DNA of 64,000 nucleotides from Nautilus pompilius (lineage: Eukaryota; Mollusca; Cephalopoda; Nautilida; Nautilidae): the NCBI GenBank assembly GCA_018389105.1, contig JACATO010001140.1, positions 124,001 to 188,000 of the forward strand, given 5' to 3'. The translations under genes and the position numbers were made by a program. The notes under the pieces were generated by a model. The model was not told the DNA's origin and searched no databases. It saw nothing but the letters and a program-made list of their open reading frames with translations. Below, in pieces: positions 7,723 through 48,201 of this stretch (position 1 is the stretch's first letter; each line of letters begins with the position of its first letter).

Positions 7723-7751
<29 letters not shown>

Positions 7752-8136
7752 GTACTGGCGTCATATCTCCCTCTGTCTGTAATGACGTAATTTCTCTCTC
7801 TGTACTGGCGTCATATCTCCCTCTTTCTGTAATGACGTAATTTATCTCTCTGTACTGGCGTCATATCTCCCTCTGTCTGTAATGACGTAATTTCTCTGTA
7901 ATGACGTCATTTCTCTCTGTACTGACGTCATATCTCCCTCTCTGTAATGACATAATTTCTCTGTAATGACGTCATTTCTCTCTCTGTACTGACGTCATAT
8001 CTCCCTCTCTGTAATGACGTCATTTCTCTCTCTGTACTGACGTCATATCTACCTCTCTGTAATGACGCCATTTCCCTCTGTATTGACGTCATATCTCACT
8101 CTCTCTGTAATGACGTCATCTCTCTCTCTCTCTTCC
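7723..8136. repeat. CRE satellite array A (50-bp dimer)
   Basis: CT runs are interrupted by two alternating cores, TGTACTG(G/A)CGTCAT and TGTAATGACGTAAT. The first part repeats every 50 bp: TGTACTGGCG begins at 7751, 7801 and 7851. The second part is more irregular and carries about eight exact TGACGTCA sites. The CT-rich strand is the plus strand. See the family note under findings. Confidence 0.9.
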
Positions 8137-10259
8137 TCCCCTCCATCCCGGCCTCACTCGTGAAAGCTAAAGATGGGATAGCTGATCTCGACCTCATCCG
8201 AGAAACTTCAGCCAGGTGAGGGCGGGAGTGGGGGGGGGTGGTGGCAGCAACCTTGTTGGCTCTTCTCCAGGTGGAAACAAAAATCCAATATCATTCTGCG
8301 AAACTTCTCGGCCTGAAATTCGACCAAAGCGTTCTGTACCCGGACACAACAGCGCTAATCTGAGATTGACTGGCTCCCTGAGAAGACACGAAGGCCTTAT
8401 TAACCAGAACTCCGGATTGTCAATACAGCTCTGCAATAAGCTATCCTTTAATAATGTATAGCACAGTATATATAATCACCTTTTCCCGCACAATATTGAT
8501 ATTCCTACAGCTCCATTCTAAATAATTCAGTTTGTTTTCTTTATAAATCTAACTGTCTATATAATAAATAGCGCAATGTTTAGAAAAATGTCCTGCTCCT
8601 GATTTATCCTTTATTATTACTCTGTCGCCGCATCTTCACGAGAAACTACTACATCGATGACTGCTTACTACAGAGACTCAGCGAGCATCAAAACAGAACC
8701 TTACTGGCCCTATTAGGCTAACGGCCAGCGGTCTACCGCTTCACCGCATAAAATCTCAAGGTCCATTGTTCTACTACTCCAAAGAGTCAGGAGGGAGATG
8801 TGTAGTACGTCCGTGTATATTCAGTCAACTAGTTGACTGCGGTTAGCATTTCGTGGTCATGTTCTTACTGGTGGTTCGCCGGAAGTGTCGATGCGGTCCT
8901 TCTGACATAGTCCTGCTACTCCCTCGCCACTGCATAGATACAAGCACAAGTTCGCATAAGCGGATATTCTTTAAACTAAATAATGGTGGGGGCGAGGAAA
9001 GATTTCTAAATTCACGAATGACATTTTAAAAAAAAAACACAATGTCTTAGTGAAAGAGCGACTTTATGATTATACGTGGGGGGGGGAGAGAAACCGTGGG
9101 ACAAGTTCGGCTGAGGCAGCGATGGGATGTAGAGTTTCTCGCCTTCCCTAACGGTAACGAAGAGCATACATCGTCGGAACTCGAGACCCGTACGGTCTTC
9201 ATTCGCAAACGAAGCCTTCGCCTCTCGCGAAATTCTAAACAACAACAACAACAAAAAACGTCTGTAAAAATCCGTTCTTTTATTGTTTTTTTTTTGGTGA
9301 AAATCATGGAGGCTAATGAGCCGGATCCGCTCAGTAATTCATCTCACAGCCCTTCCAGGTTAATGGTTTTATGATTACAGCGCCGAGTCCTGTTGGATAT
9401 TCTCATCAGCAACGGCTAGGCCTGGAAACAAATTTGTCATCCGTTTTCCAAGCGAAGCCCCGCTAATCCGATGCAACAGAAATCATGTTTATCCAAATTA
9501 TTTGCCCCGTTCGGATGCATCTCCGAGTATTAGTTTATCTCTTTCCTCTCAAGAACTCGACACAGCACCGTCTGATCTCTTTATCCCCTACAAGTGCCGC
9601 CACGCGGACTTCGTTTCTGACTTAATCTTCTAATCCCTCGCTGAGCGCCGCGTTTCTACTTATTTGGCGATAATATAGAAAAATGTCCGTCGTGTCCACT
9701 GTGCTAACGGCGCCAAACACTCGGGTTATAGAAATCACCTCGCAGACAAAAGGGCCAGATCGCGCTATTAATTCTAACGGCGATAAACGAAACAGGGGAA
9801 AGCAGTTAGAAGGATTTGCAATATTTGGGGTAGATTCCCACCATGTTATCAGAATTCTGGCCCGGGTAATGAACCGAGACTTTTAAAATTAGCTGCGAAC
9901 AGAGAAAATTGTGATTGATGCTGCTAATAGTGTGGAGAAGAAGGAAAAAAAACGTAGCGGCGAAAATCGACCAGAAAAAAACGAGGGGACGCTTTAGGGG
10001 GAAGGGGAGTTGGTTGGTCTCTCTGAGACGATGGTTAGCCCTGGGAAGGATGCCTGGAAGACGACGGCTTTCTGCGCTGCGGAAGTGCCCTTGCATTGAT
10101 GCGCCGTATGGCCGGCGCGTCTGAAAAATCATGGCTGATCCATTTTTTAATGGCCGAGAGCAAAATGCCATCGTTACATTACCATTAATGGCTGACATAA
10201 ATAAGAACCCCCCCAATTCCATATGACGGTTACTGCTCCATATCTGATATCACGAAAAG
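8137..10259. other. Intergenic, no gene recognised
   Basis: Several overlapping short frames on both strands, none with a recognisable domain. A donor-like CAG/GTGAGG lies at about 8215, just downstream of array A, but no matching acceptor and frame were convincing. From 9066 to 9374 a frame of about 100 codons crosses a poly-G and a CAA run and is probably chance. Confidence 0.4.
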
Positions 10260-10301
10260 ATGGCGGCAGTACTTACCCTGTTGTTTTTATCACTGTTAAA
10301 G
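10260..10301 (+). CDS. Possible first coding exon with signal peptide
   Basis: An ATG in good context (AAAAG before it, G after it) opens 14 codons that read MAAVLTLLFLSLLK. They are followed directly by a donor-like AAAG/GTAAAC. Hydrophobic, leucine-rich starts of this kind are typical of secretory signal peptides, and ending one in an exon junction is common in animal genes. If unspliced, the frame stops seven codons later. There is no visible second exon, because the 10.5-13 kb region downstream is repeats and a transposon fossil. This is a candidate only. Confidence 0.2.
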
Positions 10302-10546
10302 GTAAACTGTTGGATAGCGTGATATGGCCATAAACAGAAAAAAACTACCGAATCTAGCACCGCGGGTCGTCATTGAGAGAAAGGGTGAGAAATGTCTTCA
10401 CCGAGACAAACTTTGAGCGCATCTTTTTTCTTTTTTCCCCATCGGTCGTGTTCACCAAGCAGAAAGGGAAGACGAGAAACGTGACACGTTTTTACTTTAA
10501 AACGCAAATGTCGATCGTTCGAAACATTAGCGTTTTCCAACTAATC

Positions 10547-10596
<50 letters not shown>

Positions 10597-10862
10597 AGAG
10601 AGAGAGATGGCGGGAGAGAGAGAGATGGAGGAGAGAGAGAGAGAGGAGAGAGAGAGAGAGGGGGGGAGAGAGAGATGGCGGAGAGAGAGAGATGGAGAGA
10701 GAGAGAGAGAGAGAACGAGAGAGAGGGGGGGAGGAGAGAGAGGGGGATGAGAGAGAGAGATGGAGATCCGGAGAGAGAGAGAGAGGAAAGAGGAGGAGAG
10801 AGAGAGAGAGGGAGAGATCTCGAATGACGTCAGTACAGTGAGAGAGAGAGAGAGAGAGAGAG
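10547..10862. repeat. (GA)n tract with one CRE (array H)
   Basis: About 300 bp of GA repeats with G-runs and scattered GATGG interruptions. Near the end (about 10825) comes a single AATGACGTCAGTACAG, the same core as in the CRE arrays but on the opposite strand. Open frames across it on both strands consist of Arg/Glu or Ser/Leu repeats and are artefacts. Confidence 0.85.
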
Positions 10863-12880: not shown

Positions 12881-15377
12881 GTTTGATTTTAGAATTTAAA
12901 TTATTAATAGCGGAAACTGAATGAGTATAAAATATTCCGGTTTGTTACATTTAAGTGCCAACACAGCGCAAAATCCAACGTATAACGAACAACCCGACGA
13001 AATGAACGATATGCACAAGTATGACGTAAAACCTGACGTCACGCAGTACTGATCAACTATGACGCTCAGACGCCATACGTCGGTATGTATACGAATAATG
13101 CAACAAGGACTTTTCTGTCTCTCCGACAAGAGAGCTGGTTTGCGTCACCCATGTTGTATTCCAGATTGAGACCGTTTATTGAAGATCTCGCCTAAAAAGC
13201 TGAACAATCTGATCTTATTACTCGTATGCTGAGAATTCCAAAAATGAACACATTGGCCAAACAGAGGGTCGGTCTCTTATTACGTTCGGTTTTAATTAGA
13301 ATAGCAGCACCAAGGTAGAGTAAAAGTCGCCTCATTACGTACACTGTTCTACGATCGGACGGCTTTCACGTGCCCGCCGTATAATAAAGAAAACAAACAG
13401 ACAGGCAGACAAACAAAGAAATAATGGAAAAAATGGAGAAATGCCAGTCAGATGAGGCGCTCTACACATCCCGCTTGTCAAAACAATGGCCCTGTATACC
13501 AGGATGATTTATCTGACGAAAACCACCCCAGTAATCTGCGATCAATTCTCCCTCGGGATCCATCTGTAAACACGAGAATCTGCTTCCTCCAGCTCGCGCC
13601 GCTCACTGTCCAATTAGCCGAACAAAAAGACACGATTATTTAGCCGTGATTTGGCCGCTAGGTGTCCCACTGGTCTGATTTCACAAACAATCCTTGTGTA
13701 TAATTGTGTAAACACTCCGTCTTCCAGTTTGATGCAGTTGATGGCCGACTTTTGCAGTGCTATTTCTTGGTCCGATTGAAAACAGGCGGACGGACCAGTC
13801 TCCCCCCCCCCCCCCTGGAGAGAAGTGAGTCATGTGGCTTATTAAGATGGAACTGGGGACGGTAGGATAGGTTTGTGAGAACCGGGGGAGTCTATCCTGC
13901 GAAGTAAGTGACCGCCAATCGATTCCGTCCAAACAAATCACCGTTTCCGTGCCATTTTCAAACAGAACAACTCCACTCCGCAGAGAGACGATTGCTCGGG
14001 AGCGCGGGGCCAAGCGCGCGCTGACTTACTCGTTCTGAAGACTAAGGGTCTTTTGAAGAAAGAGAAAAAACGCTAAAAAGTAAAGATGACTGGGTGAGAA
14101 AAACGGGGCGAGAACTGGCGATGACCTTCAAAGGAATTTCTTTTAACAATCTGCTGTACTCAACAAGCTATCCTCCACGCGCGTCGGTGTTCTTCACGAC
14201 AGACGGCGCTGCCGACGCAGCTCCTTCGATGACAGAACTCTCGCTCGAGCTGTTTACATGGCGACGGCTCTACTACGTCAAACCGCCCACGCTCCCATAA
14301 TAGTTTGATATCCGGTTTATCTCGAAAGTTTTGTGGTACACAGAACCCCCATGAATTTCTGTTTAACAGATATTTTATTATTAATATCCGTTTCATAATG
14401 TTTAGTTGTCTTCGTACTCCACCGGGTCCGTCCCGTGGTCCTAAGGTGGATTACTTACCGGAGTCTAAATGGCGGAAGTGTTTTCCGTCCAGGACATTTT
14501 CCTGGAGCTCCGCATCCCCGATTCCGCTGATGTTCGTTCGTTCTGTCACCCGCTCATTGATTGGTCCTAGCGATGCTCCCGCCACACAGTTGGCCCTGCC
14601 GACGTTTACATCTCCCCTTATTTTGGTAACTAGATCCTTATATTCTGACAGCTTTTCTCTATTCTTGGTGGACACATTTCTTTATGCTGGTATTGCTGCA
14701 TCGATTAGCAGGCGTGTCTTCTGTGTCCCGTCCTCGACGACGATGTCTGTGTGTGCTTACTATCGTTGTTGTGGCCGTTAAGCAAAATCACCGCCTAACA
14801 TTTGCCCGCATAATTAATATATCACGAGGACCCAGCGAAGTTATCGTATTTAAAATGCAACGAAAAATTAGCAAGGCAGCAGCACCATGCTTAAGTGGAT
14901 AGCACGAAGGGTATTTACAAGGATATTGCAAATTACCTTATTCCTTTCACCTCTTCATTTAATTTTGTAGCTGTGTAATAGTAAAGTTCGTGGAATAAAA
15001 TTTAGATTCTAACAAAGAAAAAGACAAAAGAGGTGGAAAAAAACAAACATTAGAAAGTAAAAATAAGACTACAGGTTACCATTTAGAGCATCTTCGGCGA
15101 GACGATCGGTCAGAGTGCTGTAAAAAAGGGATAAAATATCGCATCTCCATCAGTATTGGAGATTTAAGGAGAATGGCGAAAGAGTGAGAAATTTCTGTGT
15201 CTGTTTAGATGAGTTTTAGATATCTGATAAAAATGATTCTGTAATTCAGAATTTTCAGTCCTAAAAAGATGTGGAGGATATTAACGCCGTCCAAAACAAC
15301 AAATCTGTGATTCAAATTTAAAGGGACACGATTAAAAATGAATGAATTCTTCTCTTCTAGACAGATGCGACGATAAT

Positions 15378-15385
<8 letters not shown>
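12881..15385. other. Intergenic, no gene recognised
   Basis: Contains a perfect CRE near 13036, a 14-base poly-C at about 13802-13815, and overlapping short frames between 13.4 and 14.8 kb on both strands. None shows a known domain. The 158-codon plus-strand frame at 14305-14781 has an antisense partner and no recognisable motif, so I do not call it. Confidence 0.4.
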
Positions 15386-15417
<32 letters not shown>

Positions 15418-15801
15418 CTGACGTAATATCTCTCTCTTTACTGACGTCATATTTCTCTCTGTACTTCCGCAATCTCTCTCTGTACTGACACCACCTCTCC
15501 CTCTTCCTCTCTGTACTGACGTCATATCTCTCTCTTTACTGACGTCATATTTCTCTCTGTACTTCCGCAATCTCTCTCTGTACTGACACCACCTCTCCCT
15601 CTTCCTCTCTGTACTGACGTCATATCTCTCTCTTTACTAACGTCATATCTCTCTCTTTACTGACGTCATATTTCTCTCTTTACTGACGTCATATTTCTCT
15701 CTGAACTGACGTAATATCTCTCTCTGTACTGACGTCATATTTCTCTCTGTACTGACGTAATATCTCTCTCTTTACTGACGTCATTTCTCTCTCTCTCTCT
15801 C
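15386..15801. repeat. CRE satellite array B (98-bp higher-order unit)
   Basis: CT tract with cores of the type TGTACTGACGTCATAT and TTTACTGACGTCATAT. A longer unit that includes ACTTCCGCAATC and ACTGACACCACC is present twice, 98 bp apart (ACTTCCGC begins at 15463 and 15561). The 3' half contains near-identical short units. The CT-rich strand is the plus strand. Confidence 0.9.
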
Positions 15802-20058: not shown

Positions 20059-20468
20059 TACACACACACACACACAGAGACACACACACACATACACACA
20101 GAGACACACATACACCGACACACACACACACACCACACAGAGACACACACACACCACACACACACACACAGAGACACACATACACCGACACACAACACAC
20201 ACACACATACACGGACACACACACACACGTACACACATACACACACACGGACACACACACGTACACAGACACACAAACACACGGACACACACAGACACAC
20301 ACACAGACACACACCGACACACACACACGTACACAGACACACAAACACACGGACTCATACACGGACACACACACACGTACACAGACACACAAACACACGG
20401 ACACACCGACACACACACATACACGGACACACACACCGACACACACACATACACGGACACACACACAT
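20059..20468. repeat. (CA)n tract with GACA, CGGA and TACA interruptions
   Basis: About 410 bp of CA repeats with regular GAGACAC, CGGACAC, CGTACAC and CATACAC interruptions. The long Cys/Val-rich frames on the minus strand are translations of this repeat and not genes. Confidence 0.95.
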
Positions 20469-22296
20469 AATGTACGCACATAAACCATCAGTACCCTTAT
20501 TTATGCTGCATATATTAGAGCTTCTGAAATTTTCGATGATGTTTGTATTAAGAACGGCTGCTCGAGGGAAGGAATGTACGTACTTTGCTTTTATTGATTG
20601 TAGTCAGCGAGCGTCCTCACTGCATCCACAGAATCAGCAGCATCCTGTCTATTTTCATACAGGCGCAAACACTACGCCGTCTAGCGGCGCGACGATCGAT
20701 ATCAGTTAACCACAAATAACTGAGCTTACGCCGAACACAATAATTCATAATTATTCAGAATTTTGGTATGGAATCCAATCTGAGCTCGGTACGTGGCGCA
20801 TTACCTACCTACCGATGACCTGTACACTCAAGATTTGCTATTCATGAATATTCAACTATGCTATTAACTGGAAGAAGACACAAACACACAAACACCAGCG
20901 GTTCACTTATCATATTTAAAGAGGAACTAAAGTCCAGATTAATTTTTTGCAATTCCACCCCATACACATACACCTATCTTTACAGTAATATGCACATTTG
21001 GAATTATTTTTCCCTAGAATATACAGCATAGGAAGCAGCTGTCTGCCTGTCTCTATTTCCTGTGGATGCCAGTTGTTACGTCATCTCTGGCCACCGACAT
21101 CATCCACGTGGCTATGATATATCATCGTCAAGTACCGCATGATAGATACCGCCACCAAATGATATCGCCATAACGTACGCCTAATGTTGAACGTTGACGA
21201 CAGACCGAGTTCTGTTCGCTTGTGCAGAAACTGAAATAGACGTCAGCCTCGTTTATGGACGGACATATTCAGTCTGCGAGTTTGCTTTGTTCGCTGTTCG
21301 CCTTTACGCTGCTATTGTTGTCTGTGGCCGGGTTAGATTTTCCAGAGCCTAAATGAAGCGTACCGACCGACTCCCCCCTTGTCACCCCTCATTAAGAGGG
21401 CAAACAGAGACGGACCCCGGTCCTGTTTTTGTTGAATCTCTCAACCGGAGATCGCCCAGTTTTGTTCCTTATTTCTTTTGAGAGGCGAAGGTTAGGGGGG
21501 GGGTCTTTGTATCATATCTAAACATCCTCCCGTCCGCTCCCCGGACCGTCCGTCCACGCTCCGCTGGCGGCAGCCCCCGCGGTGTAGAGATGCAGAATCC
21601 TGACAACAAACGCAACCAGGGGATTTGCTTCCCACCCTCGGGGAACATCTGATCTCGCCCGTCCGCGGCCGCCGCGGTTCAAACAACAACACCGCTTAAC
21701 GAAAATGGCCTTCCAAGAAACACAGACCTAGGGGGAAGGGATCGGATTCCAGCCGCGCAACCGCGAGACAGCTCTGATGACCGGTAAGAGGAGAAAGCGG
21801 ATAGGGGTCCATTTCGTTGAGAGTTGGCGCCTCCGCCTCCCTGCCCTCGTTTTTTTTTTGTTTTTTTTTAATTGTTGATTTCTAATCTTGATTATGTCCG
21901 CGTGAAGCTTCCAGTCCAGGAGTAATTGAACGGTATCGAGTTACCGCCCCTGTCTCGAATATTCCGGGCCGCAAAGATTGTGGCAGCGTCACCTGCTTCC
22001 ATCCCGGCGGCGTCTGCGAGAACAGCGGACGATTTGGCCGGTTATGTTCAGGGTCCGAATTTTACCATCAGAAGAATTCGGCCAGAACAGAAGTGCCAAC
22101 ACTCTTTCTGTTTCCTAAACACCCCAGAATACATATCGGCCAGTTGCTGCGCCTCATTATCTCCCTCAGGGCGTACAGCCAATCAGGGACCTCGTAATGC
22201 TTGGTTCTGCATTTGCTCTATTTACGTCTATCTATATAATTAAGACAATGAAAAGTTATTACAATAATAAAGTGCAGCTGTTTTACATCACAGTAC
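20469..22296. other. Intergenic, no gene recognised
   Basis: No supported gene. The segment 21.3-22.1 kb is CpG-rich and could be promoter-like. The open frames at 21492-21692 (-) and 21926-22243 (+) match no family I know. Confidence 0.4.
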
Positions 22297-24655
22297 CTCT
22301 CTCTCTCTCTCTCCTGTAATGACCTCATCTCTCTCCTGTAATGACGTCACCTATCTCTCCTGTAATGACATCATCTCTCTCTCCTGTAATGACCTCATCT
22401 CTCTCCTGTAATGACGTCACCTCTCTCTCCTGTAATGACATCATCTCTCTCTCCTGTAATGACCTCATCTCTCTCTTGTAATGACATCATATCTCCCTCC
22501 TGTAATGACGCCATCTCTCTCTCCTGTAATGACATCATCTCTCTCTCCTGTAATGACCTCATCTCTCTCCTGTAATGACGTCACCTCTCTCTCCTGTAAT
22601 GACATCATCTCTCTCTCCTGTAATGACGTCACCTCTCTCTCCTGTAATGACATCATCTCTCTCTTGTAATGACCTCATCTCTCTCTTGTCATGACATCAT
22701 CTCTCTCCTGTAATGACGTCACCTCTCTCTCCTGTAATGACCTCATCTCTCTCTTGTAATGACATCATCTCTCTCTCCTGTAATGACGCCATCTCTCTCC
22801 TGTAATGACGTCACCTATCTCTCCTGTAATGACATCATCTCTCCTGTAATGACCTCATCTCTCTCCTGTAATGACGTCACCTCTCTCTCCTGTAATGACA
22901 TCATCTCTCTCTCCTGTAATGACGTCACCTCTATCTCCTGTAATGACGTCATATCTCTCCTGTAATGACCTCATCTCTCTCCTGTAATGACATCATCTCT
23001 CTCTTGTAATGACATCATCTCTCTCTCCTGTAATGACCTCATCTCTCTCCTGTAATGACATCATCTCTCTCTTGTAATGACCTCATCTCTCTCTTGTAAT
23101 GACATCATCTCTCTCCTGTAATGACGTCACCTCTCTCTCCTGTAATGACGTCACCTCTCTCTCCTGTAATGACCTCATCTCTCTCTTGTAATGACATCAT
23201 CTCTCTCCTGTAATGACGTCACCTCTCTCTCCTGTAATGACATCATCTCTCTCTCCTGTAATGACGTCACCTCTATCTCCTGTAATGACGTCATATCTCT
23301 CCTGTAATGACCTCATCTCTCTCCTGTAATGACGTCACCTCTCTCTCCTGTAATGACGTCACCTCTCTCTCCTGTAATGACCTCATCTCTCTCTTGTAAT
23401 GACATCATCTCTCTCCTGTAATGACGTCACCTCTCTCTCCTGTAATGACATCATCTCTCTCCTGTAATGACGTCACCTCTATCTCCTGTAATGACGTCAT
23501 ATCTCTCCTGTAATGACCTCATCTCTCTCCTGTAATGACATCATCTCTCTCTGTAATGACATCCTCTCTCTCCTGTAATGACCTCATCTCTCTCTCTGTA
23601 ATGACATCATCTCTCTCCTGTAATGACGTCACCTCTCTCTCCTGTAATGACGTCACCTCTCTCTCCTGTAATGACGTCACCTCTCTCTCCTGTAATGACC
23701 TCATCTCTCTCTTGTAATGACATCATCTCTCTCCTGTAATGACGTCACCTCTCTCTCCTGTAATGACGTCACCTCTCTCTCCTGTAATGACGTCACCTCT
23801 CTCTCCTGTAATGACCTCATCTCTCTCTTGTAATGACATCATCTCTCTCCTGTAATGACGTCACCTCTCTCTCCTGTAATGACCTCATCTCTCTCTTGTA
23901 ATGACATCATCTCTCTCTTGTAATGACCTCATCTCTCTCTTGTAATGACATCATCTCTCTCCTGTAATGACGTCACCTCTCTCTCCTGTAATGACGTCAC
24001 CTCTCTCTCCTGTAATGACGTCACCTCTCTCTCCTGTAATGACCTCATCTCTCTCTTGTAATGACATCATCTCTCTCTGTAATGACGTCACCTCTCTCTC
24101 CTGTAATGACCTCATCTCTCTCTTGTAATGACATCATCTCTCTCTTGTAATGACCTCATCTCTCTCCTGTAATGACGTCACCTCTCTCTCCTGTAATGAC
24201 GTCACCTCTCTCTCCTGTAATGACGTCACCTCTCTCTCCTGTAATGACGTCACCTCTCTCTCCTGTAATGACGTCACCTCTCTCTCCTGTAATGACGTCA
24301 CCTCTCTCCTGTAATGACGTCACCTCTCTCTCCTGTAATGACGTCACCTCTCTCTCCTGTAATGACCTCATCTCTCTCTTGTAATGACATCATCTCTCTC
24401 CTGTAATGACGTCACCTCTCTCTCCTGTAATGACGTCACCTCTCTCTCCTGTAATGACGTCACCTCTCTCTCCTGTAATGACGTCACCTCTCTCTCCTGT
24501 AATGACGTCACCTCTCTCTCCTGTAATGACGTCACCTCTCTTCCTGTAATGACGTCACCTCTCTCTCCTGTAATGACCTCATCTCTCTTGTAATGACATC
24601 ATCTCTCTCTTGTAATGACCTCATCTCTCTCCTGTAATGACGTCATCTCTCTCTC
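22297..24655. repeat. CRE satellite array C (24-bp unit)
   Basis: A 2.36-kb array whose basic unit is 24 bp: a CTGTAATGACGTCAC core plus a CT spacer. Three variants intermix: TGACGTCAC, TGACATCAT and TGACCTCAT. By eye about 46 cores keep the exact TGACGTCA palindrome. The first half is a mosaic of variants. The last 500 bp is almost pure TGACGTCACC units. Because 24 is divisible by 3, frames stay open on both strands, but these are not genes. Confidence 0.97.
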
Positions 24656-25066: not shown

Positions 25067-25068
<2 letters not shown>

Positions 25069-28823: not shown

Positions 28824-28914
28824 CAGAGAGAGAGAGAGAGAGAGAAGCGAGAGAGAGAGAGAGAGCGATGACGTCATTACAGAGAGAGATGACGTCATTA
28901 CAGAGAGAGAGAGG
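28824..28914. repeat. Short CRE array G (inverted orientation)
   Basis: A GA tract with two consecutive GATGACGTCATTACAGAGAGA units, the reverse complement of the core seen in arrays A and D. Confidence 0.9.
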
Positions 28915-29655
28915 GTTAAAAAGTTAATATTATCTATTTTATTCATTTCGATGATGAGACAATAACCGAATAAAGGAATACAATAGAAATAAAATTTGCT
29001 GTCGCCAACCGTATCTTCATTATTGTCCAGCAGGGATCCGTTAACCCTGTTAAAGCGGCTCTGTACCAAATCCGAATCTGTGTTTCTTTGTTTGTTTGTT
29101 TTTTTATCTGTCAGTAATTTCGAAAACTTCACATTAAAACGCCATATGAACGGTCGAAGTAAAGAGAATACAAATCTTAGCCCCATCCTTCCCTTAAAAA
29201 GGGGGCAGGAGTGTGTGTGTGTGTGTGGAAACAACAGGGGATAGTTGTCACCGAGGTAAGATGTTAGGTACCACTGATAGATAAACCAAGCGATGCCATA
29301 TGCTCCGATCTTCGTGCCGTCGGTTATAGCCTCATCTAGCAAGTTGGACTCGGTGGTCTCCCCCTTCGACAGCAAGGGAATTGGTCTTGGATTGGCTTTT
29401 GAGAGACTGTCGGGAATTCTGCCGATTTTTACTCTTTGACAGTCGCGAATTCTTTTTATAGCAATGCCGTGCTGGGAAGGTCCTATAGATTATCGGCAGA
29501 CGTGTAATGGACTCAAGATTCCGTACACGGCCGCTGTAAGCGAGCTGATACATTCATAGATGCAATCGCTTAATCGTTCTAACCGATCCAAATGCTTCGA
29601 TTTAACAAATAAATAAATAATTATTAAATACTTTACAAAATATAACTACCTAAAA
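28915..29655. other. Intergenic
   Basis: Contains a short GT run (29211-29227). A 184-codon minus-strand frame (28821-29375) ends inside the GA/CRE tract and shows no domain, so I do not call it. Confidence 0.4.
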
Positions 29656-34170: not shown

Positions 34171-34483
34171 TTTGGAGTGTTAATAGGCATCGAAAACAGT
34201 ATCAGGCGCGAAGGTCGTGGCCTTGGTTATCCCCCCCTGTTCAGTTTGGAGTGTTAATAGGCATCGAAAACAGTATCAGGCGCGAAGGTCGTGGTCTTGG
34301 TTATCCCCCTCGTGTTCAGTTTGGAGTGTTAATAGGCATCGAAAACAGTATCAGGCGCGAAGGTCGTGGCCTTGGTTATCCCCCCCTGTTCAGTTTGGAG
34401 TGTTAATAGGCATCGAAATCAGTATCAGGCGCGAAGGTCGTGGCTTTGGTTATCCCCCCCTGTTCAGTTTTGAGCGTTTAAAA
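34171..34483. repeat. 74-bp minisatellite, four units plus a partial
   Basis: Units begin TTTGGAGTGTTAATAGGCAT at 34171, 34245, 34320 and 34394, with a truncated fifth at 34468. Spacing is 74, 75, 74 and 74 bp. Each contains GCGCGAAGGTCGTGG and ends in a poly-C run. The units are almost identical. A 92-codon frame crossing it is a by-product. Confidence 0.97.
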
Positions 34484-36458
34484 AAATTAGCATAGCGGGA
34501 CCCCCTTTTTTCTTCAAATTTCAGATAAAGGGAAATCGAACTGACCTATAGCAGTTTTACATAAATCAGCGAATAATCAAAAATGTTTACAGCAGAAAGA
34601 ACTTCGCCTCTAATGGCTGCTTGGAGAGCTATGTTTACACGGCCATTCCCATGATTGTTTTTCGTATTTAATGGATGACGGATGGAACGTCCAAGTGCCT
34701 TTTGGTTCTTTATGTCGGTTATTAAAAACGAAGTACAGTTGTTTTCTTTTTTAAAGTTCTTTACGAGAGTTAATTAAAATCGGGGCGAAGACGATATTTC
34801 GTCACCTTTTCTGGTTTTATCTGAGAAGTAAACTGGGATGAATTCAGAAAGAGACCGGAAACCGCATCATTTCAGCCTGACCTTTTATAGTCTCGTCCTG
34901 AGGTTTAGTTTCGTGATCCAGTATCCGCTTTAACACCCAGCCAGAGTTCTAGACTTTTACGAAGGCCCAGAAGCTAGCAAAGCAATAAATCTGCCTGCAT
35001 GCGGCCATTTCAATTTTGATTAAAATTTCAGACGCGACCCCTTGGTTGTCGCGTGATCCCCTAACCCCGTCATCTGTTATTTTCTTCTACAAAAAGCGGG
35101 GTTCTTACCGCCGTTTGTCGCAAGCAACAACAACAAAATCAGTAATAACGCAAGTGATTATAATATTCTTTTGGTACTCTCTAACAAACAGAACCCCGAC
35201 GGACGATATTTCTGGTTGTGGTTAGGGGCCCATCAGCAGCCAACGCGGGTCTGGTGGAGGGGAGCTAGCAGGAGGAGGAGTCTGGGTAGGACATCAGCGG
35301 CAAGTCGTTAAGTAGAAGCGACCCCAACCACCAACCACTAAACTAAAGAAAACAGTCCCACCAATTGCATACCGTGAAGTATGCCTTACAAGTTTATTTA
35401 TCCGAAAGGGGGCGCTGGCATCAAATAAATCATAGAGTTTTTGTCACACATAGACGTGCATGAATGGCCTTTTGGGCTTAGCCGAAATATATTAACAAAA
35501 CAACAAAAAACTCGACAAAAATAGCGGATAACCGAACGTGTTGATGAGTTCATCTCTTCGTATTTTTGTGGCCTGGCGGTGGTTTATAAAGAGACACAAA
35601 CCGTATGCCAAGATACCATCAGTTATCTGTCAGTGGCCCCGGAATCACGCCAGGAAAATACACGTGCAGATGCCGTCGGGGGCCTTGGTGGAACTCTTCA
35701 GCCTTCAGGCGCGGAAGTAAATGGGAGCCGGGGCAAAGCGGAGCCTTGCCGCAGGGTTAGGCCGTGCCCTAACCGGGATCCCCCATACCAGATTACCACA
35801 GACCGCCACCGGCCTCGCGCCTTTCCTCTTCGTTTTCCTTTTTGAAACCCCATTTTTTCCCGAAATTCATTAAAACCGTTTTAACGCGGATACGACTTAA
35901 GGAGGTTAAAATAGTCAGGTCTGTGACGCAATATTAAGTATAAGGACGCTAGATAAAACCTTAACGCTATAAGACGGTTTACGGTTCAGAGATTTTCGTG
36001 AAAGGAAACACGGAGTAAATTATGGGTGATATCATAATCTACATAGTAACCGATGCAAGTATCTTATGGATGAGACCCCTATCACAGAACATGACAGCGA
36101 TCGAGAGCGGCCAGCGGCTGACTTGTAGGAACAGCGATCGCTCTGAATGTGATAGACTGGCCAGGAAAAAGAGGTTTTTACTTAGGAATTATTGAAGAAA
36201 TCCGCCGGCAAATAAATGTAAATAAAATAGGAAAAATCAGAAAGTGTCACATCTGCAGAAGGACTGTAGAGGCATAGGCAGTGATGTTATGGTAGTGCTA
36301 ACGTTCCTTCAAGAACGGTAAGATAGATATTAGCACCGAGTGGTCTCGGTGAATGAGTAGCTGTCGGAGGACCTTCACTGAGAGGAGGAAACCAGGCGGC
36401 GAGGTTTAAATGAGCAGCAGAAATGAAGCAGTGGGATGACCAAGTCTCTGGAAGAGGT
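34484..36458. other. Intergenic, no gene recognised
   Basis: AT-rich and mixed sequence. The 35.5-35.9 kb part is GC-richer with two overlapping frames (35538-35845) that match nothing known. Confidence 0.45.
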
Positions 36459-36599
36459 CTCTCTCTCTCTCTCTGTAATGACATCATATCTCTCTCTGTA
36501 ATGACGTCATATCTCTCTGTACTAACGTCATATCTCTCTCTGTAATGACATCATATCTCTCTCTGTAATGACGTCATATCTCTCTCTGTACTGACGTCA

Positions 36600-36645
<46 letters not shown>
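36459..36645. repeat. CRE satellite array D
   Basis: A CT tract with six cores alternating TGTAATGACATCATAT, TGTAATGACGTCATAT and TGTACTGACGTCATCT. It ends in about 45 bp of CT that runs straight into a Tc1 transposase remnant. Confidence 0.92.
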
Positions 36646-36651
<6 letters not shown>

Positions 36652-36661
36652 ACAGGTGAGT
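36644..36661 (+). promoter_or_regulatory. Ratchet-point-like splice motif (acceptor joined to donor)
   Basis: CT repeats lead into TTTCTTTACAG (36645-36655), followed at once by GTGAGT (36656-36661). A polypyrimidine tract plus CAG joined to GTGAGT is the consensus described for recursive-splicing ratchet points in long introns. The motif is a mutated Tc1 codon run (TTT ACA GGT GAG TCC for FTDES) with the array supplying the pyrimidines. Use in vivo is unknown. Confidence 0.3.
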
Positions 36662-37080
36662 CCAGGGCTGAACTGTTTGGCGACAATCAACGGATGCTTG
36701 TTCGAAGGTTGATAGGGGAGTGGTCGAAGGTCGATCAGTACAAGTGAGTGGCTGCATATCAACCGAGAACGTAGGAGTTTTGCACAAAATCGTAGGTGTA
36801 CTCATTTATGACAGGTGCAGGCAGATTCGCACCCATCATGCAATTCTTTCAGCAAGGCATCTCATTGAGCAGAGATTCATCTTCAAACTCGACAACAACC
36901 TCAAGAATGCAGTTAATGTACCGAAAAACTATCTGGAAGGTAAAGAGGCTGATGGATCACTCACAAAGATGCCTTGGCCTGCATAAAAATCCTGCTGGGA
37001 CTATGTTGGGTGATACATCAACTGTGACAATCAAACGACAACCAAACACTTTGGATGAATTGTCCAAAGTGCTATAAGAT
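36646..37080 (+). mobile_element. Tc1/mariner transposase fragment, 5'-truncated at array D
   Basis: The plus strand begins, directly after the CT array, with SFFTGESRAELFGDNQRMLV. This is the FTDES motif of Tc1 transposases with the first catalytic Asp changed to Gly. After frameshifts it continues with VSGCISTENVGVLHKI, then THHAILSARHLIEQRFIF, then KLDNNLKNAVNVPKNYLEGK (the second catalytic Asp, QDNDPKH in the family, is kept) and EADGSLTKMPWPA. The SPDLNP segment is destroyed by a stop and an indel. A looser match continues to about 37080. The N-terminal DNA-binding half is missing. Confidence 0.75.
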
Positions 37081-38777
37081 TATTTAGAACATTCCATAGT
37101 CAGGCATTCATAACCCATGAAAACAAAGTGTGTTGCTCTGTATAAAGCATAGAGCTTACATACCAAGAACTAAGCAGCTGTACAACATATTCATTTGGGG
37201 TTTTTTTTATCTAATTTCTGTCATACTGAATTGTGTGTGTATTATAACGTAGTTACTTACTCGTCATCTAAAAGCATCCTGTGCGTGATTCCATTTTTTG
37301 GTGAGTTTTTTTTCTGTTGATAATGAATGAATGCACATTCAAAAGTTCCTGCTGCCTCCAAGAGTGCTCCCCTGCCACAGCTCTCATCTTAAATGTAACC
37401 CTGTTGCGTCCTAACACCGATGCGAATTATTTAACTTAAGACACAAAAAAAGGAATTTTAAGAAATACAGATCTAAAATAATGTTAAAACACAATTTTCT
37501 ATGTTGATGCACAACAACCAAAGACTTCTTTAATTTGAGCTCTTCTCTATGCGCAGAACTATATTTCTGACAAGTTTTGGGTTTTGGGTGGGGGAACCAA
37601 AATTTAAAAAAAAATAAAACAACAAACTTTTATATTTTAAAATCTAAAACACTAAAAGTTTAATAATAATTTTTAAAAATTGAAGTCGCAACGCGACAAC
37701 GTTCCATAACTACATCGTCGTTGATGCGGTGACAGAGGAATTAAGGAAAGACAACCAGCGAAAGAACTTCTCCCTCAAGATCCTGGCGGACGAACTCGAT
37801 GTGTTTGCGGCTTCTCTGCGCTTCCATTAAGGGATTTTTACCGACACGAGCGTTGATGCGGCAACAAGCCCTTCTCGGCTTCTTATCTGCGCTTCGTCAT
37901 TTCGCCGCTGCCGCCTTGCCGCCCACCGCTCCGTGGCAGGCACCAGCTGACACTGTACAGCTTTCACTGTGGCCCGCCATTAATTTGCCCGACAGGAAGT
38001 CAACGACTAGTCTCGTTACCCAGATCTTCCTGATAACGACGGGTTTTCATTCTGGTGGGATTTTTTTCTCCCTCTCCCTCTCCCCCCCCCCCAGGCTGTT
38101 TGCCACCTGAGGTACTTTTATGCAACCGTTCGTGCAAATGAAAAACGTTATTGCCATGACTACCATCTATTATCTCTCCTTTTCTTTTTTTCTCCCGCTT
38201 TGAGAGTAAATGTAAAAAAAAAAAATCACTTTGTACGTTAAGAGGGGGAAGCGCGAGAGATTAGACAGAATACATAAAAGATATTGGAGAGCGAAGTGGG
38301 AAATGCTGAAGCCACTCCATCCATCGCTAGAGTAGCCAGTTCCCCCCTCCTTTTTAACCTTTGACTCCACAGGCCTCACAGCGGAAGTGTTGGAGACAAC
38401 ACCGGTCTGTTCAGATGCTGAATCGTTGCGGCTTTATTTTTGTCATTAAGAAAGAAAATTAATGCTATTTAATTTGCAAAAACAGTTACCCCGCCGGCAT
38501 GGGAAACGTCACTGGGGCCAGAGCACGAGTGAAGGGGGTGAAGAAGAGGGAGAGTTAGGATTTCCGCAGCGGAAGTTAAGAAAAACTTGACCGGAAATCA
38601 TTTCTTTCTCTTTCTCTCTCTCTTTGTTTTGGGTCCTGATTCCTCTAACGGAAACCAGATGTCATCGTATTGATGTACCTCCCTTTTTCAATTGTTCAAA
38701 GTATTAAAAATAACGACCTGCGACAGATATCCTTCGTTCATGGAAGACAAAGCAGAGAAGGCAACAACTGTATGGGA
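37081..38777. other. Intergenic
   Basis: AT-rich up to 37.7 kb, then GC-richer from 37.7 to 38.1 kb with a 103-codon frame (37799-38110) of no recognised family. No gene supported. Confidence 0.4.
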
Positions 38778-41700
38778 AGAGAGAGAGAGAGGGAGAGATT
38801 ACGCCATTACAGAGAGAGATGACGTCAGTACAGCGAGAGATAGAGAGGGAGAGAGGTTACCCATTACAGAGAGCACAGAGAGAGAGATTACGCCATTACT
38901 GAGAGAGATGACGTCAGCACAGAGAGAGATAGAGAGGGAGAGAGATTACGCCATTATAGAGAGAGATGACGTCATCACAGAGAGAGATATATTACCCCAT
39001 TACTGAGAGAGATGACGTCAGCACACACAAAGAGAGGAAGAGATTACGCCATTACAGAGAGAGAGAGATATATTACTCCATTACAGAGAGAGATGGCGTC
39101 AGCACACACAAAGAGAGGAAGAGATTACGCCATTACAGAGAGAGATATATTACCCCATTACAGAGAGAGATGGCGTCAGCACAGAGAGAGATATATTACC
39201 CCATTACTGAGAGAGATGACGTCAGCACACACAAAGAGAGGAAGAGATTACGCCATTACAGAGAGAGATTACCCCATTACTGAGAGAGATGACGTCAGCA
39301 CACACAAAGAGAGGAAGAGATTACCCCATTACAGAGAGAGAGATTACGCCATTACTGAGAGAGATGACGTCAGCACAGAGAGAGATATATTACCCCATTA
39401 CTGAGAGAGATGACGTCAGCACACACAAAGAGAGGAAGAGATTACGCCATTACTGAGAGAGATGACGTCAGCACAGAGAGAGATAGAGAGGGAGAGAGAG
39501 ATTACGCCATTACAGAGAGAGATGACGTCAGCACAGAGAGAGATCGAGAGGGAGAGAGATATTACGCCATTACAGAGAGAGATGACGTCAGCACAGAGAG
39601 AGATCGAGAGGGAGAGAGACGATTACGCCATTACTGAGAGAGATGACGTCAGCACAGAGAGAGATATAGAGGGAGAGAGAGATTACGCCATTACTGAGAG
39701 AGATGACGTCATCACAGAGAGAGATAGAGAGGGAGAGAGAGATTAAGCCATTACTGAGAGAGATGACGTCATCACAGAGAGAGATAGAGAGGGAGAGAGA
39801 GATTAAGCCATTACTGAGAGAGATGACGTCATCACAGAGAGAGATAGAGAGGGAGAGAGAGATTACGCCATTAGTGAGAGAGATGACGTCATCACAGAGA
39901 GAGATAGAGAGAGATAGAGAGATTACGCCATTACTGAGAGAGATGACGTCATCACAGAGAGAGATAAAGAGAGATAGAGAGATTACGCCATTACTGAGAG
40001 AGATGACGTCAGCACAGAGAGAGATAGAGAGGGAGAGAGATAGAGATTACGCCATTACAGAGAGAGATGACGTCATCACAGAGAGAGATAGAGGAGAGAT
40101 AGAGAGATTACGCCATTACTGAGAGAGATGACGTCAGCACAGAGAGAGATATATTACCCCATTACTGAGAGAGATGACGTCAGCACACACCAAAGAGAGG
40201 AAGAGATTACGCCCTTACAGAGAGAGATTACCCCATTACTGAGAGAGAGATGACGTCAGCACACACAAAGAGAGGAAGCCCAAAGAGATTGAGATTACCC
40301 CATACAGAGAGAGGAGATTACGCCATTACTGAGAGAGATGACGTCGCACAGAGAGAGATAGAGAGGGAGAGAGAGATTACGCCATTACAGAGAGAGATGG
40401 CGTCAGCACAGAGAAAGATAGAGAGGGAGAGAGAGATTACGCCATTACAGAGAGAGATGACGTCAGCACAGAGAGAGATAGAGAGGGAGAGAGAGATTAC
40501 GCCATTACAGAGAGAGATGGCGTCAGCACAGAGAAAGATAGAGAGGGAGAGAGAGATTACGCCATTACAGAGAGAGATGACGTCAGCACAGAGAGAGATC
40601 GAGAGGGAGAGAGATATTACGCCATTACAGAGAGAGATGACGTCAGCACAGAGAGAGATCGAGAGGGAGAGAGAGATTACGCCATTACTGAGAGAGATGA
40701 CGTCAGCACAGAGAGAGATAGAGAGGGAGAGAGAGATTACGCCATTACTGAGAGAGATGACGTCATCACAGAGAGAGATAGAGAGGGAGAGAGAGATTAC
40801 GCCATTAGTGAGAGAGATGACGTCAGTACAGCGAGAGATAGAGAGGGAGAGAGAGATTACGCCATTACTGAGAGAGATGACGTCAGCACACGCCAAGAGA
40901 GAGAGATTACGCCATTACTGAGAGAGATGACGTCAGCACAGAGAGAGATAGAGAGGGAGAGAGAGATTACGCCATTACAGAGAGAGATGACGTCAGCACA
41001 GAGAGAGATCGAGAGGGAGAGAGATATTACGCCATTACAGAGAGAGATGACGTCAGCACAGAGAGAGATCGAGAGGGAGAGAGATTACGCCATTACTGAG
41101 AGAGATGACGTCAGCACAGAGAGAGATAGAGAGGGAGAGAGAGATTACGCCATTACTGAGAGAGATGACGTCATCACAGAGAGAGATAGAGAGGGAGAGA
41201 GAGATTAAGCCATTACTGAGAGAGATGACGTCATCACAGAGAGAGATAGAGAGGGAGAGAGAGATTACGCCATTAGTGAGAGAGATGACGTCATCACAGA
41301 GAGAGATAGAGAGAGATAGAGAGATTACGCCAATACTGAGAGAGATGACGTCATCACAGAGAGAGATAGAGAGAGATAGAGAGATTACGCCATTACTGAG
41401 AGAGATGACGTCAGCACAGAGAGAGATAGAGAGGGAGAGAGATTACGCCATTACAGAGAGAGATGACGTCATCACAGAGAGAGATATATTACCCCATTAC
41501 TGAGAGAGATGACGTCAGCACACACAAAGAGAGGAAGAGATTACGCCATTACACAGAGAGAGAGATATATTACCCCATTACTGAGAGAGATGACGTCATC
41601 ACAGAGAGAGATAGAGAGGGAGAGAGAGATTACGCCATTAGTGAGAGAGAGAGGGGGACTCAGTACAGCGAGAGATAGAGAGGAGAGAGAGATTACGCCA

Positions 41701-41980
41701 TTACAGAGAGAGAGATTACGCCATTACAGAGAGAGATGACGTCAGCACAGAGAGAGATAGAGAGGGAGAGAGAGATTACGCCATTACAGAGAGAGATGGC
41801 GTCAGCACAGAGAGAGATAGAGAGGGAGAGAGAGATTACGCCATTACAGAGAGAGATGACGTCAGCACAGAGAGAGATAGAGAGGGAGAGAGAGATTACG
41901 CCATTACTGAGAGAGATGACGTCATCACAGAGAGAGAGAGAGAGAGAGGAGAGCGGAGAGAGAAGAGAGAGAGAGAGAGA
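38778..41980. repeat. CRE satellite array E (60-bp unit, 3.2 kb)
   Basis: The largest repeat in the window. The GA-rich strand is plus. The standard unit is exactly 60 bp: GCCATTAC(A/T)GAGAGAGATG, then ACGTC(A/T)(G/T)CACAGAGAGAG, then a GATAGAGAGGGAGAGAGAGAT-like filler. It runs in register from 40381 to 40920. Shorter units containing ATATATTACCCC or CACACACAAAGAGAGG intersperse the first 700 bp. About 44 exact TGACGTCA sites are seen. Sixty is divisible by three, so frames of up to 223 codons stay open on both strands. These are repeat translations, not genes. Confidence 0.97.
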
Positions 41981-42426: not shown

Positions 42427-42445
42427 ATTATTATTATTATTATTA

Positions 42446-42494
<49 letters not shown>

Positions 42495-44470: not shown

Positions 44471-44510
44471 GTCATAGTAACCCTATCGGTCATAGTAACC
44501 CTATCGGTCA
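44471..44510. repeat. 18-bp tandem duplication
   Basis: GTCATAGTAACCCTATCG is present twice in a row, followed by a further GTCA. A very small, probably recent duplication. Confidence 0.9.
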
Positions 44511-45905: not shown

Positions 45906-45979
45906 ATGGCGGCGGCGCATAGACCGACAGAAGATGTCGAGAGGGCTCCAACAAATATTGAAAACCCATGGAACGTTGT
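45906..45979 (+). CDS. Weak candidate first exon
   Basis: ATGGCGGCGGCG opens a frame reading MAAAHRPTEDVERAPTNIEN and reaches a donor-like TTGT/GTAAGA after 74 bases. If not spliced, it stops after 25 codons. The ATATGGCGGCGG context resembles YY1-type promoter motifs. No second exon or promoter was identified, so chance is likely. Confidence 0.12.
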
Positions 45980-46260
45980 GTAAGACAGGAACCAGTAACA
46001 TTTAGGGTTCTATCGGAGGGAAAAGAAAAAAAAAAGTTGGAAATCTGTAAGTCACATGGCGTAGGTGGGGCTGTTCGGGCACCGCAGAACTCCGGCTAGC
46101 ATGAGAGACCCACCTAACCAACAAACGGTAGATCCCTACCAAAAGCCTTCAATTTTAGATGTGGGAGAAAATCAGAGAACCCGAAACCCGAAAAAAAAAA
46201 AATGCTACACAGCCAGCTGGTGAAAAAACAAGCTAAGGCGGTACGCAAAAACAAGTTATT

Positions 46261-46316
46261 CCGACCGGGATTCGAACCCTGGCCCTCGTCTAACCACTCT
46301 ACTACCGCGCTGCCTA
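46261..46316 (-). other. tRNA-derived SINE head or tRNA pseudogene
   Basis: The reverse strand reads GGCAGCGCGGTAGTAGAGTG, then GTTAGACGAGGGCC, then AGGGTTCGAATCCCGG. This is a D-arm with A-box features and a perfect B box (GGTTCGAATCC) with a base-paired T stem. The anticodon arm is largely missing, so it is not a working tRNA. It is followed on the minus strand by a T-rich run, as expected for a tRNA-derived SINE or a truncated tRNA copy. Confidence 0.55.
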
Positions 46317-47422
46317 AGCGAATTGTTTAACACCCTGATTTATTGTTATCCATTAAATATGCTGCATCGTCATCTCGTTTCTCTCAGTATGCGTGTTAGA
46401 CACGACGACGGTACTCCTCTTAATTTGTAGTATATTTTAAACAAGTCTTTCTGGCTTGTTTCTATGTTTTGAAGGTCAACAGGATCACGACACCCCCACG
46501 TGAACATACAGCTTATTCACTGAATCGGTTCTCTAATCTTGAGGTCGGTCGGCTTAGTATTTGTGTAGGCGATCTAAATCTGGAGACATAAGGAAATACA
46601 ATGGTTGTGATGTACTATTACTTAAAGACTTAAAGCGCCACAATTTTAATACATTTACACGCTAATGTCCTAGTCGCACGTTGCTATAAGCTAGAAGAAT
46701 GACTCGCGCAGACCAAACCGGGCTCGGTACAAACCCCCCACATTTTCATAAAAAGCCCTTAATGTAGGACCGATTCAAGTGTAAAAATCAGCTTTTGTAC
46801 TCTAGATATCTGTACACGTCTATAAAGCGGCGATAGCCGAACACGCTTCCTGTATTGGCATTATTTCACTCTAAAACCATGGGCAGTACATCTTTAAGGC
46901 AAATACTTCGTAATGCAGAGAGCTCTTTATCTGTCCTATCAGAATGATGTCTCAGCACTGGCGAGCGCCCTTAAATTAAACAAGAAACAAAAGTTCTTTC
47001 TTGCTAATGCCAACTCTCCCTCCCTGATCGAAGCTGCTGGCAAACCGGTCTCGACGTCTTCTGTAGGCCTCCGTCCGCTGGTGAAGCAGAAACCCGGGCT
47101 TATGTCGAACCGAAGTCCGACGTTGATTGGCCTTGGCTTGGCGACACCTTTATTCCTGGTCATCGCGAACCTTTTGTGCAGTATGGATACTGCAGCGACC
47201 AGGTAGCAATGCCACGGGAACTGCTGCCGGCAGACGGTCATCTCGCAGATGTTGAATAGCGCACCTATGTAAGGCTTGTATCCTCGGGATGACCTATCCC
47301 TGGATCGATGCTGAAGCCGATTCACCCGCAGAGCAGTATCCTATTCCCAGTTCGATTGGCCATCACATATTCAATTGAGAATTGCGCATAATCGGCTAAG
47401 CAAAGACATTCACGGTTTTCGA
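46317..47422. other. Intergenic
   Basis: Two overlapping frames of about 100-128 codons on opposite strands at 46913-47325, neither with a recognised domain. No gene supported. Confidence 0.4.
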
Positions 47423-48201
47423 TCTCTCACTCTCTCTCTCTCTCTAATGATGTCATGTCTCTCCCTGTAATGACATCATCTCTCTTAATCACGTCATCTC
47501 TCTCTCTAATGATGTCATCTCTCTCCCTGTAATGACATCATCTCTCTTAATGACGTCATCTCTCTCTAATGATGTAATCTCTCTCCCTGTAATGACATCA
47601 TCTCTCTTAATGACGTCATCTCTCTCTAATGATGTAATCTCTCTCCCTGTAATGACATAATCTCTCTTAATGGCGTCATCTCTCTGTCTCTCTAATGATG
47701 TCATCTCTCTCCCTGTAATGACATCATCTCTCTCTAATGATGTCATCTCTCTCCCTGTAATGACATCATCTCTCTTAATGACGTCATCTCTCTCTAATGA
47801 TGCCATCTCTCTCCCTGTAATGACATCATCTCTCTTAATGACGTCATCTCTCTCCCTGTAATGACATCATCTCTCTTAATGACGTCATCTCTCTCTAATG
47901 ATGCCATCTCTCTCCCTGTAATGACATCATCTCTCTCTAATGATGTCATCTCTCTCCCTGTAATGACATCATCTCTCTTAATGACGTCATCTCTCTCTAA
48001 TGATGCCATCTCTCTCCCTGTAATGACATCATCTCTCTTAATGACGTCATCTCTCTCTAATGATGCCATCTCTCTCCCTGTAATGACATCATCTCTCTCC
48101 CTGTAATGACATCATCTCTCTTAATGATGTCATCTCTCTCTAATGATGTCATCTCTCTCCCTGTAATGACATCATCTCTCTTAATGACGTCATCTCTCTC
48201 T
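47423..48201. repeat. CRE satellite array F (60-bp three-core unit)
   Basis: CT-rich plus strand with a 60-bp higher-order unit containing three cores in fixed order: TAATGATGTCAT, TGTAATGACATCAT and TTAATGACGTCAT. Successive units are in exact register, for example from 47521 to 47640. Some units have lost or swapped one core, and the third core is TGCCATC-type in several units (TGATGCCA). Confidence 0.95.

What the first reader, a model, noticed from the sequence alone, without database searches (positions are those of the whole stretch)
7723..48201. Dispersed family of CT/GA arrays with regularly spaced CREB/ATF sites
Eight separate tracts in 64 kb share one design: a CT (or GA) spacer punctuated by the 10-bp palindrome ATGACGTCAT or near variants, in both orientations. 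The two largest hold about 46 and 44 exact TGACGTCA sites by eye. TGACGTCA is the full CRE bound by bZIP dimers in animals. Random microsatellite slippage does not explain conservation of an 8-bp palindrome across arrays with different periods and spacers. Possible roles, all inferred: a bZIP-binding sink, an array of enhancers, a chromatin-organising satellite, or simply a transposon-borne tandem repeat.
Basis: partly seen in the sequence, partly recalled or inferred. Interest (0 to 1): 0.7.

Follow-up and report, generated by a model that had tools for sequence, protein, structure and literature searches.

The report
CRE-bearing cassette dispersed within CT microsatellites
A short DNA cassette containing the full CREB/ATF site (TGACGTCA) sits in one fixed direction inside CT repeats at many unrelated places of a roughly 728-million-base, probably animal, genome, and it looks like a self-amplifying repeat that may land on short CT stretches rather than a conserved control switch.

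Summary
Eight CT/GA tracts in the window (7.8 kb, 12%) hold 120 of its 124 TGACGTCA sites, 46 and 44 of them in the two largest. The design is genome-wide: a 24-base pattern (20 fixed bases) occurs 2,822 times in 727.6 Mb, reversed control 0. Four of 40 fixed 3-kb stretches hold such arrays, which extrapolates to 6,600-62,000 arrays. The cassette (C/T)n-GTA[A/C]TGACGTCAT-(C/T)n keeps one polarity relative to the CT strand. The flanks compared share almost nothing between arrays. The array at 36,458-36,651 interrupts a decayed Tc1-like transposase gene; a related copy runs through that site with only CTCTTC there, so this array was probably gained at a six-base pyrimidine stretch and was not carried by that transposon.

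A conserved CRE is not supported. Genome-wide non-consensus rates are 29% at the core CpG, 15% at one arm pair and 10% at one spacer pair. Intact cores show no clear extra amplification. Best reading: a composite minisatellite family that enters CT tracts by homology and expands there, a new variant of a known kind. Protein binding could not be tested.

The parts
7725..8144 (+). Array A1: CT array, about 16 units, 8 exact TGACGTCA, basic period 23
10548..10862 (-). GA microsatellite tract holding a single cassette (TGACGTCA at 10825): a one-unit 'array'
15377..15801 (+). Array A2: about 16 units, 8 exact TGACGTCA, starting in a pure pyrimidine run of 38
22296..24655 (+). Array A3: about 102 units of period 24, 46 exact TGACGTCA; other units mostly TGACATCA and TGACCTCA
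28825..28915 (-). Array A4: two units in a GA tract
36458..36651 (+). Array A5: six units, 3 exact TGACGTCA; lies inside a decayed Tc1-like element whose copy in L012 has no array at this site
36295..37166 (+). Decayed Tc1-like transposon copy interrupted by A5 (homologous to L012:1300-2022, 65-72% identity in the aligned pieces)
38775..41980 (-). Array A6: about 108 units in 60-bp and longer higher-order repeats, with TGTGCTGACGTCAT-like and TGTAATGGCGTAAT-like units, 44 exact TGACGTCA
47423..48207 (+). Array A7: about 37 units, 8 exact TGACGTCA; many cores are the CpG-decay forms TGACATCA and TGATGTCA

Best explanation
This is a genome-wide family of composite minisatellites. Its unit is a cassette of about 14 bases, TGTA[A/C]TGACGTCAT, flanked by CT repeat. 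Proposed working: (1) a short pyrimidine stretch, or a CT microsatellite grown from one, exists at an ordinary site; (2) a cassette is copied in from an array elsewhere by template switching or ectopic gene conversion, guided on both sides by CT homology, which fixes its polarity; (3) slippage and unequal exchange multiply the cassette into an array with its own period and variants; (4) cores decay, fastest at the CpG, and arrays drift apart. Shown: dispersal, single polarity in everything examined, mostly unrelated flanks, CT brackets, array-specific variants, and one array absent from a related transposon copy that has a CTCTTC stretch at the site. Inferred: that A5 was gained rather than lost elsewhere, the copying step itself, its enzymes, and the order of steps 1 and 2.
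For: Genome-wide pattern 2,822 vs 0 reversed control. Polarity: 33 of 100 CT-rich regions hold GTANTGA (392, my tally), flipped marker 0 in all 100; the flipped-form pattern gave 111 hits genome-wide, and 0 of the 100 listed has the AC that a real flip would carry. 3 of 74 array flanks match another fetched sequence (about 7 of the 74 were empty or nearly so because the array reaches the end of its locus), and the window's arrays share no flanks. In 31 of 32 multi-copy arrays a terminal perfect CT run exceeds the mean inner one, and in 28 of 32 both do; in 28 of 33 both terminal runs are 10 or more. Empty site for A5: L012 is continuous, with a few bases including CTCTTC where the window has about 190 bp; the piece there aligns with a Tc1-like transposase in L017 (score 70, best of 200 shuffles 42), and that more distant relative and its copy in L021 are also unbroken at the matching codons. 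Unit numbers run from 1 to 108 within one window. Mean within-array distance 3.96, between arrays 5.45, of 22.
Against: One empty site only, against a 65-72% identical copy, so the junction cannot be reconstructed in detail. Terminal CT runs could also come from slippage at array edges, and comparing a 60-bp flank with short inner spacers favours the flank. No donor array was matched to a recipient. CT arrays without the cassette exist (11 of 61 by my reading), so CT alone is not enough. One of 20 fetched places, L010, holds a TGACGTCA pair outside any CT tract, and one isolated site is in L058. Whether whole cassettes occur outside CT was asked but did not complete. The search tool warns that counts of repeats can be lower bounds.
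Confidence: 0.6

Rival explanations
1. The arrays are kept by selection as CREB/ATF (bZIP) binding platforms: enhancer arrays or a titrating sink.
For: TGACGTCA is the full CRE (recalled; the ATF/CREB link of ATGACGTCAT is also stated in PMC3534124, passages seen). It is the second commonest of 256 8-bp palindromes in the systematic sample (52; median 1). At each core position the array consensus departs from TGACGTCA in 0 to 2 of 37 arrays. Over all 37 arrays the core deviates less (0.078) than its neighbours (0.126-0.138).
Against: That advantage is absent in the 10 arrays not found through a CRE pattern search (core 0.097; neighbours 0.056-0.135). Genome-wide the core is less well kept than the spacer pair tested (29.1% CpG, 15.2% arm, 10.3% spacer). 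Intact cores make up half or fewer of the units in 7 of these 10 arrays, 0.55-0.78 in the other 3.
Confidence: 0.08
2. A transposon or SINE carries the tandem repeat and dispersed it.
For: Dispersed over many contigs. Transposons with internal tandem repeats are known (recalled). 3 of 10 ORFs scanned in the fetched loci carry transposon domains.
Against: No shared flanks in self-comparison and 3 of 74 flanks match elsewhere. A5 interrupts a Tc1-like element and is missing from its L012 copy. Arrays usually end in CT runs.
Confidence: 0.1
3. CRE as a meiotic recombination hotspot drives the spread: bZIP-bound ATGACGTCAT provokes breaks, and CT homology directs repair, so the cassette promotes its own copying.
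For: ATGACGTCAT is the M26/CRE motif that creates hotspots in fission and budding yeast, dependent on ATF/CREB-type factors (PMC3534124, passages). Units with an intact core are somewhat more often identical to a near neighbour (crude odds ratio 1.56, stratified by array 1.71).
Against: The same measure gives 0.94 crude and 1.51 stratified for an intact left flank, and 2.92 and 2.50 for an intact right flank, so the core lies between the flanks. Copy number does not rise with the fraction of intact cores (Spearman -0.24, p 0.15, 37 arrays). Hotspot activity of the CRE in animals was not looked up.
Confidence: 0.1
4. Local expansion from a few ancestral arrays, spread by segmental duplication.
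For: Some contigs hold many hits: C39 gives 30 of the 100 listed places.
Against: Mostly unrelated flanks among the fetched arrays; one array absent from a related transposon copy.
Confidence: 0.06

Closest known systems
Compound or interrupted microsatellites and minisatellites
   Same: CT repeat with interruptions and higher-order periods
   Different: One specific 14-base cassette in one polarity is shared by loci with unrelated flanks, which independent interruption cannot give
mini-me elements of Diptera (Wilder and Hollocher 2001; seen only as cited in PMC1634856, passages)
   Same: A dispersed family linking a short element with simple repeat (details recalled)
   Different: mini-me are described as mobile elements from which tandem repeats grow; here no element border or shared flank was found, and the order may be reversed: the CT tract receives the cassette
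Short dispersed satellite arrays seeded by homology or extrachromosomal circles (recalled; no paper read)
   Same: Arrays of one unit at many unrelated sites
   Different: The landing homology would be CT repeat and the unit is tiny; no circle or donor was shown
M26/CRE meiotic hotspot of yeasts (PMC3534124, passages)
   Same: Same 10-bp palindrome
   Different: Studied there as sites placed in single yeast genes; here tandem arrays in another genome, with no clear sign that intact cores are preferentially amplified

Membership tests
Functional CREB/ATF site arrays | Core more constrained than neighbouring sequence | tested here: not met
   (unascertained arrays); one spacer pair and one arm pair tested genome-wide
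Functional CREB/ATF site arrays | Protein binding or regulatory effect in cells | not testable with these tools
   needs ChIP, CUT&RUN or ATAC data
Transposon-borne tandem repeat | Shared element sequence at array edges | tested here: not met
   (the 40 bp next to each array were left out)
Transposon-borne tandem repeat | Target-site duplication | tested here: inconclusive
   A5 junction too diverged; pyrimidine edges would hide it
Minisatellite / short satellite family | Head-to-tail copies with array-specific variants | tested here: met
Minisatellite / short satellite family | Same unit at many loci | tested here: met
Simple microsatellite | Fully explained by slippage of a 1-6 bp unit | tested here: not met
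   shared 14-base cassette in one polarity
M26/CRE recombination hotspot | Motif present | tested here: met
   ATGACGTCAT 36 times in the window
M26/CRE recombination hotspot | Raised meiotic recombination dependent on the motif | not testable with these tools
   an indirect sequence test showed no clear preference for intact cores

The most novel reading that the evidence does not exclude
An enzyme-free, sequence-guided genomic parasite: a 14-base cassette that copies itself between pyrimidine tracts across a genome by CT homology alone, has filled a percent or more of it, and owes its success to a bZIP-bound palindrome that provokes the breaks it is copied through.
Probability: 0.1. Interest if true: 0.85.

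Novelty: new variant of a known kind. Interest (0 to 1): 0.55.

Why it matters
It is a natural case in which a specific longer motif, not just a simple repeat, occupies microsatellites at unrelated sites, with a before-and-after comparison at one site. That makes the question of how short tandem repeats move between loci directly testable. The systematic sample extrapolates to about 315,000 TGACGTCA sites (bootstrap 36,000-728,000), nearly all in arrays in that sample (51 of 52), so any CREB/ATF mapping in this species must deal with them, and motif enrichment alone would be no proof of regulation.

Tried and rejected
Special conservation of the CRE: rejected after unascertained and genome-wide counts; the 37-array table made the core look better kept (0.078 against 0.126-0.138), but 27 of those 37 arrays come from loci fetched through the exact double-CRE pattern. 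A first position table also counted palindromic matches on the wrong strand and was dropped; another was anchored on GTA, on a right-hand CT run or on the exact core and is not relied on. Preferential amplification of intact cores: no clear signal. Transposon carriage: no shared flanks. Viral collection, one 17-base pattern: 0 matches. Rfam at gathering scores: 0 matches; tRNA: 0. Pfam on 10 window ORFs: nothing above a curated cut-off. Pfam on the 45-residue piece at the empty site: 0 families, so its Tc1 assignment rests on the alignment to L017 and on Pfam for L017. Rows dropped: L002-L004 and L006-L008, which overlap L001 and L005; arrays with fewer than four units or with 60% pyrimidine or less.

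Literature, open-access library only: 0 papers hold TGACGTCA with satellite DNA and tandem repeat; 0 hold TAATGACGTCAT; 35 hold ATGACGTCAT with repeat, 20 listed, none by title about such arrays. Searches (8 of 8 listed; 10 of 66; 1 of 1; 8 of 109; 6 of 54) showed no such family by title or abstract start. Passages only were seen of PMC3534124, PMC8257504 and PMC1634856.

Species: not identified. Genome size (727.6 Mb, 2,558 contigs) is close to the 730.58 Mb of Nautilus pompilius (PMC8257504, passages), and a chitin-synthase N-terminal match in L020 below Pfam's cut-off (21.5 of 23.5 bits) would suit a mollusc (recalled), but no marker gene was compared.

Unfinished: genome-wide TGACGTCA with its control, cassettes outside CT context, and a search for more copies of the A5 element; the genome server did not answer these.
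Full report
What is there. The window (64,000 bp, 42.9% GC, CpG observed/expected 0.88) contains eight CT/GA tracts with units built around TGACGTCA: seven arrays and one GA tract with a single unit. Together they cover 7,796 bp (12.2%) and hold 120 of the 124 TGACGTCA in the window. The counts of 46 and 44 for the two largest are exact. Periods differ (23, 24, 60 and higher-order), and arrays have their own variants: A3 mixes TGACGTCA with TGACATCA and TGACCTCA, A7 has many CpG-decay forms, A6 holds TGTGCTGACGTCAT-like and TGTAATGGCGTAAT-like units (A6 read on the pyrimidine strand).

One polarity. Read on the pyrimidine strand the consensus unit is (C/T)n-GTA[A/C]TGACGTCAT-(C/T)n. One search tabled 100 CT-rich regions of the window, L001, L005 and L009-L048; 33 of them hold the marker GTANTGA (392 copies by my tally) and none holds the flipped TCANTAC. 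Genome-wide, a flipped form of the pattern gave 111 hits, but none of the 100 listed has AC at the two free positions after the core, as a real flip would.

How common. The window lies in a 727,640,739-bp assembly of 2,558 contigs. Two cores at one fixed spacing gave 78 hits, some being one place read on both strands, control 0. Of 20 such places fetched, one, L010, is a TGACGTCA pair outside any CT tract. The 24-base pattern with 20 fixed bases occurs 2,822 times (1,560 + 1,262), control 0. For a fairer density I read 40 stretches of 3 kb at set positions on 12 large contigs; these contigs were known to hold at least one hit, so there is a mild bias, and the window itself is denser. Four of 40 stretches hold arrays; 51 of the 52 TGACGTCA are in them and one stands alone. 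This extrapolates to about 24,000 arrays (Poisson 95% 6,600-62,000) and 2.4% of the genome (bootstrap 0.4-5.3%). TGACGTCA is the second commonest of 256 8-bp palindromes in this sample.

Is the core specially kept? In 10 arrays not found through a CRE pattern search (six in the window, four in the systematic sample; 374 units; arrays with fewer than four units dropped) the mean within-array deviation is 0.097 for the core, 0.135 for GTA, 0.085 for the 5' CT and 0.056 for the 3' CT. Over all 37 arrays the core looks better (0.078 against 0.126-0.138), but 27 of these came from loci fetched through the exact double-CRE pattern. Genome-wide I loosened two bases at a time from the pattern (2,822): core CpG 3,982 (reversed control 32), so 29.1% non-CG; core arm CA 3,328 (control 0), so 15.2%; spacer CT 3,147 (control 0), so 10.3%. 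The core is thus not better kept than the spacer. Only one spacer and one arm pair were tested, only the A variant was counted, and slippage may refresh the spacer, so this speaks against strong constraint rather than excluding weak constraint.

Where arrays come from. No two arrays in the window share flanks, and 3 of 74 flanks of up to 520 bp match another fetched sequence; about 7 of the 74 were empty or nearly so because the array reaches the end of its locus. Two of the three are the flanks of A5. There the window carries a decayed Tc1-like element (36,295-37,166) with A5 in the middle; the copy in L012 (1,300-2,022; 65-72% identity in pieces) runs straight through, with a few bases including CTCTTC where the window has about 190 bp. 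The 45-residue piece there aligns with the Tc1-like transposase of L017 (score 70; best of 200 shuffles 42), and that more distant relative and its copy in L021 are unbroken at the same codons. The simplest reading is that A5 was gained inside a transposase gene at a native pyrimidine stretch; loss from L012 and both relatives is less likely. The third matching flank, left of the L017 array, stops about 335 bp short of it.

Brackets. In 31 of 32 arrays with two or more units a terminal perfect CT run is longer than the mean inner one, in 28 of 32 both are, and in 28 of 33 both are at least 10 long. Unit numbers from 1 (10,825) and 2 (A4) to about 100 occur in the same window. Of 61 CT arrays in the fetched DNA, 44 hold the CRE or a CpG-decay form. 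Of the other 17 (first 110 bases printed), 6 show diverged units by my reading and 11 have only short or miscellaneous interruptions. The 40 most widely shared purine-bearing 8-mers all belong to the cassette or its variants; simpler CATCTC and CCATCTC interruptions also recur (CATCTCTC in 13 of the 17).

Mechanism. I favour CT-homology-guided copying of the cassette into pyrimidine tracts, followed by local expansion. One polarity follows from such guidance. The alternative, that the CRE is kept for bZIP binding, is not needed by any result here. The M26/CRE hotspot idea (ATGACGTCAT creates meiotic hotspots in two yeasts; PMC3534124, passages) is attractive because it would give the cassette a drive. 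The test here is mixed: units with an intact core are more often identical to a near neighbour (stratified odds ratio 1.71), but this lies between the two flanks (1.51 and 2.50), and copy number does not rise with intact cores.

What is new. I found no description of such a family in the open-access library (titles and abstract starts of the papers listed, which were a part of the hits). As a kind it is a composite minisatellite; the cassette, the polarity, the scale and the empty site make it an unusual one.

Noticed in passing
window 29715-30241: Five near-identical (98%) 99-bp tandem repeats that stay open in one frame, within a 255-aa stop-to-stop ORF with a 33-aa repeat.
   Followed up: no
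window 34170-34478: Four 74-bp tandem repeats, 95% alike, outside any CT tract.
   Followed up: no
window 20060-20467: A 400-bp AC/TG tract without any TGACGTCA, so the cassette is not found in this other dinucleotide repeat.
   Followed up: partly
window 59219-59557 (-): 112-aa ORF that reads like a ZBED5-type hAT-derived protein (recalled resemblance; Pfam gave no significant match).
   Followed up: no
window 27456-28192: CT-rich region with CTCGAGAG-type interruptions but no cassette.
   Followed up: no
L010 3469-3493 (G000:C108): A pair of TGACGTCA sites in ordinary sequence, outside any CT tract.
   Followed up: no
L039 1-3000: A 3-kb stretch with only 7.9% G+C.
   Followed up: no
L027 1-2726: A long 66-bp tandem repeat, about 95% alike, next to a CRE array.
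   Followed up: no
G000 contig C39, about 0.46-1.13 Mb: C39 gives 30 of the first 100 listed pattern hits, mostly in several separate clusters.
   Followed up: no
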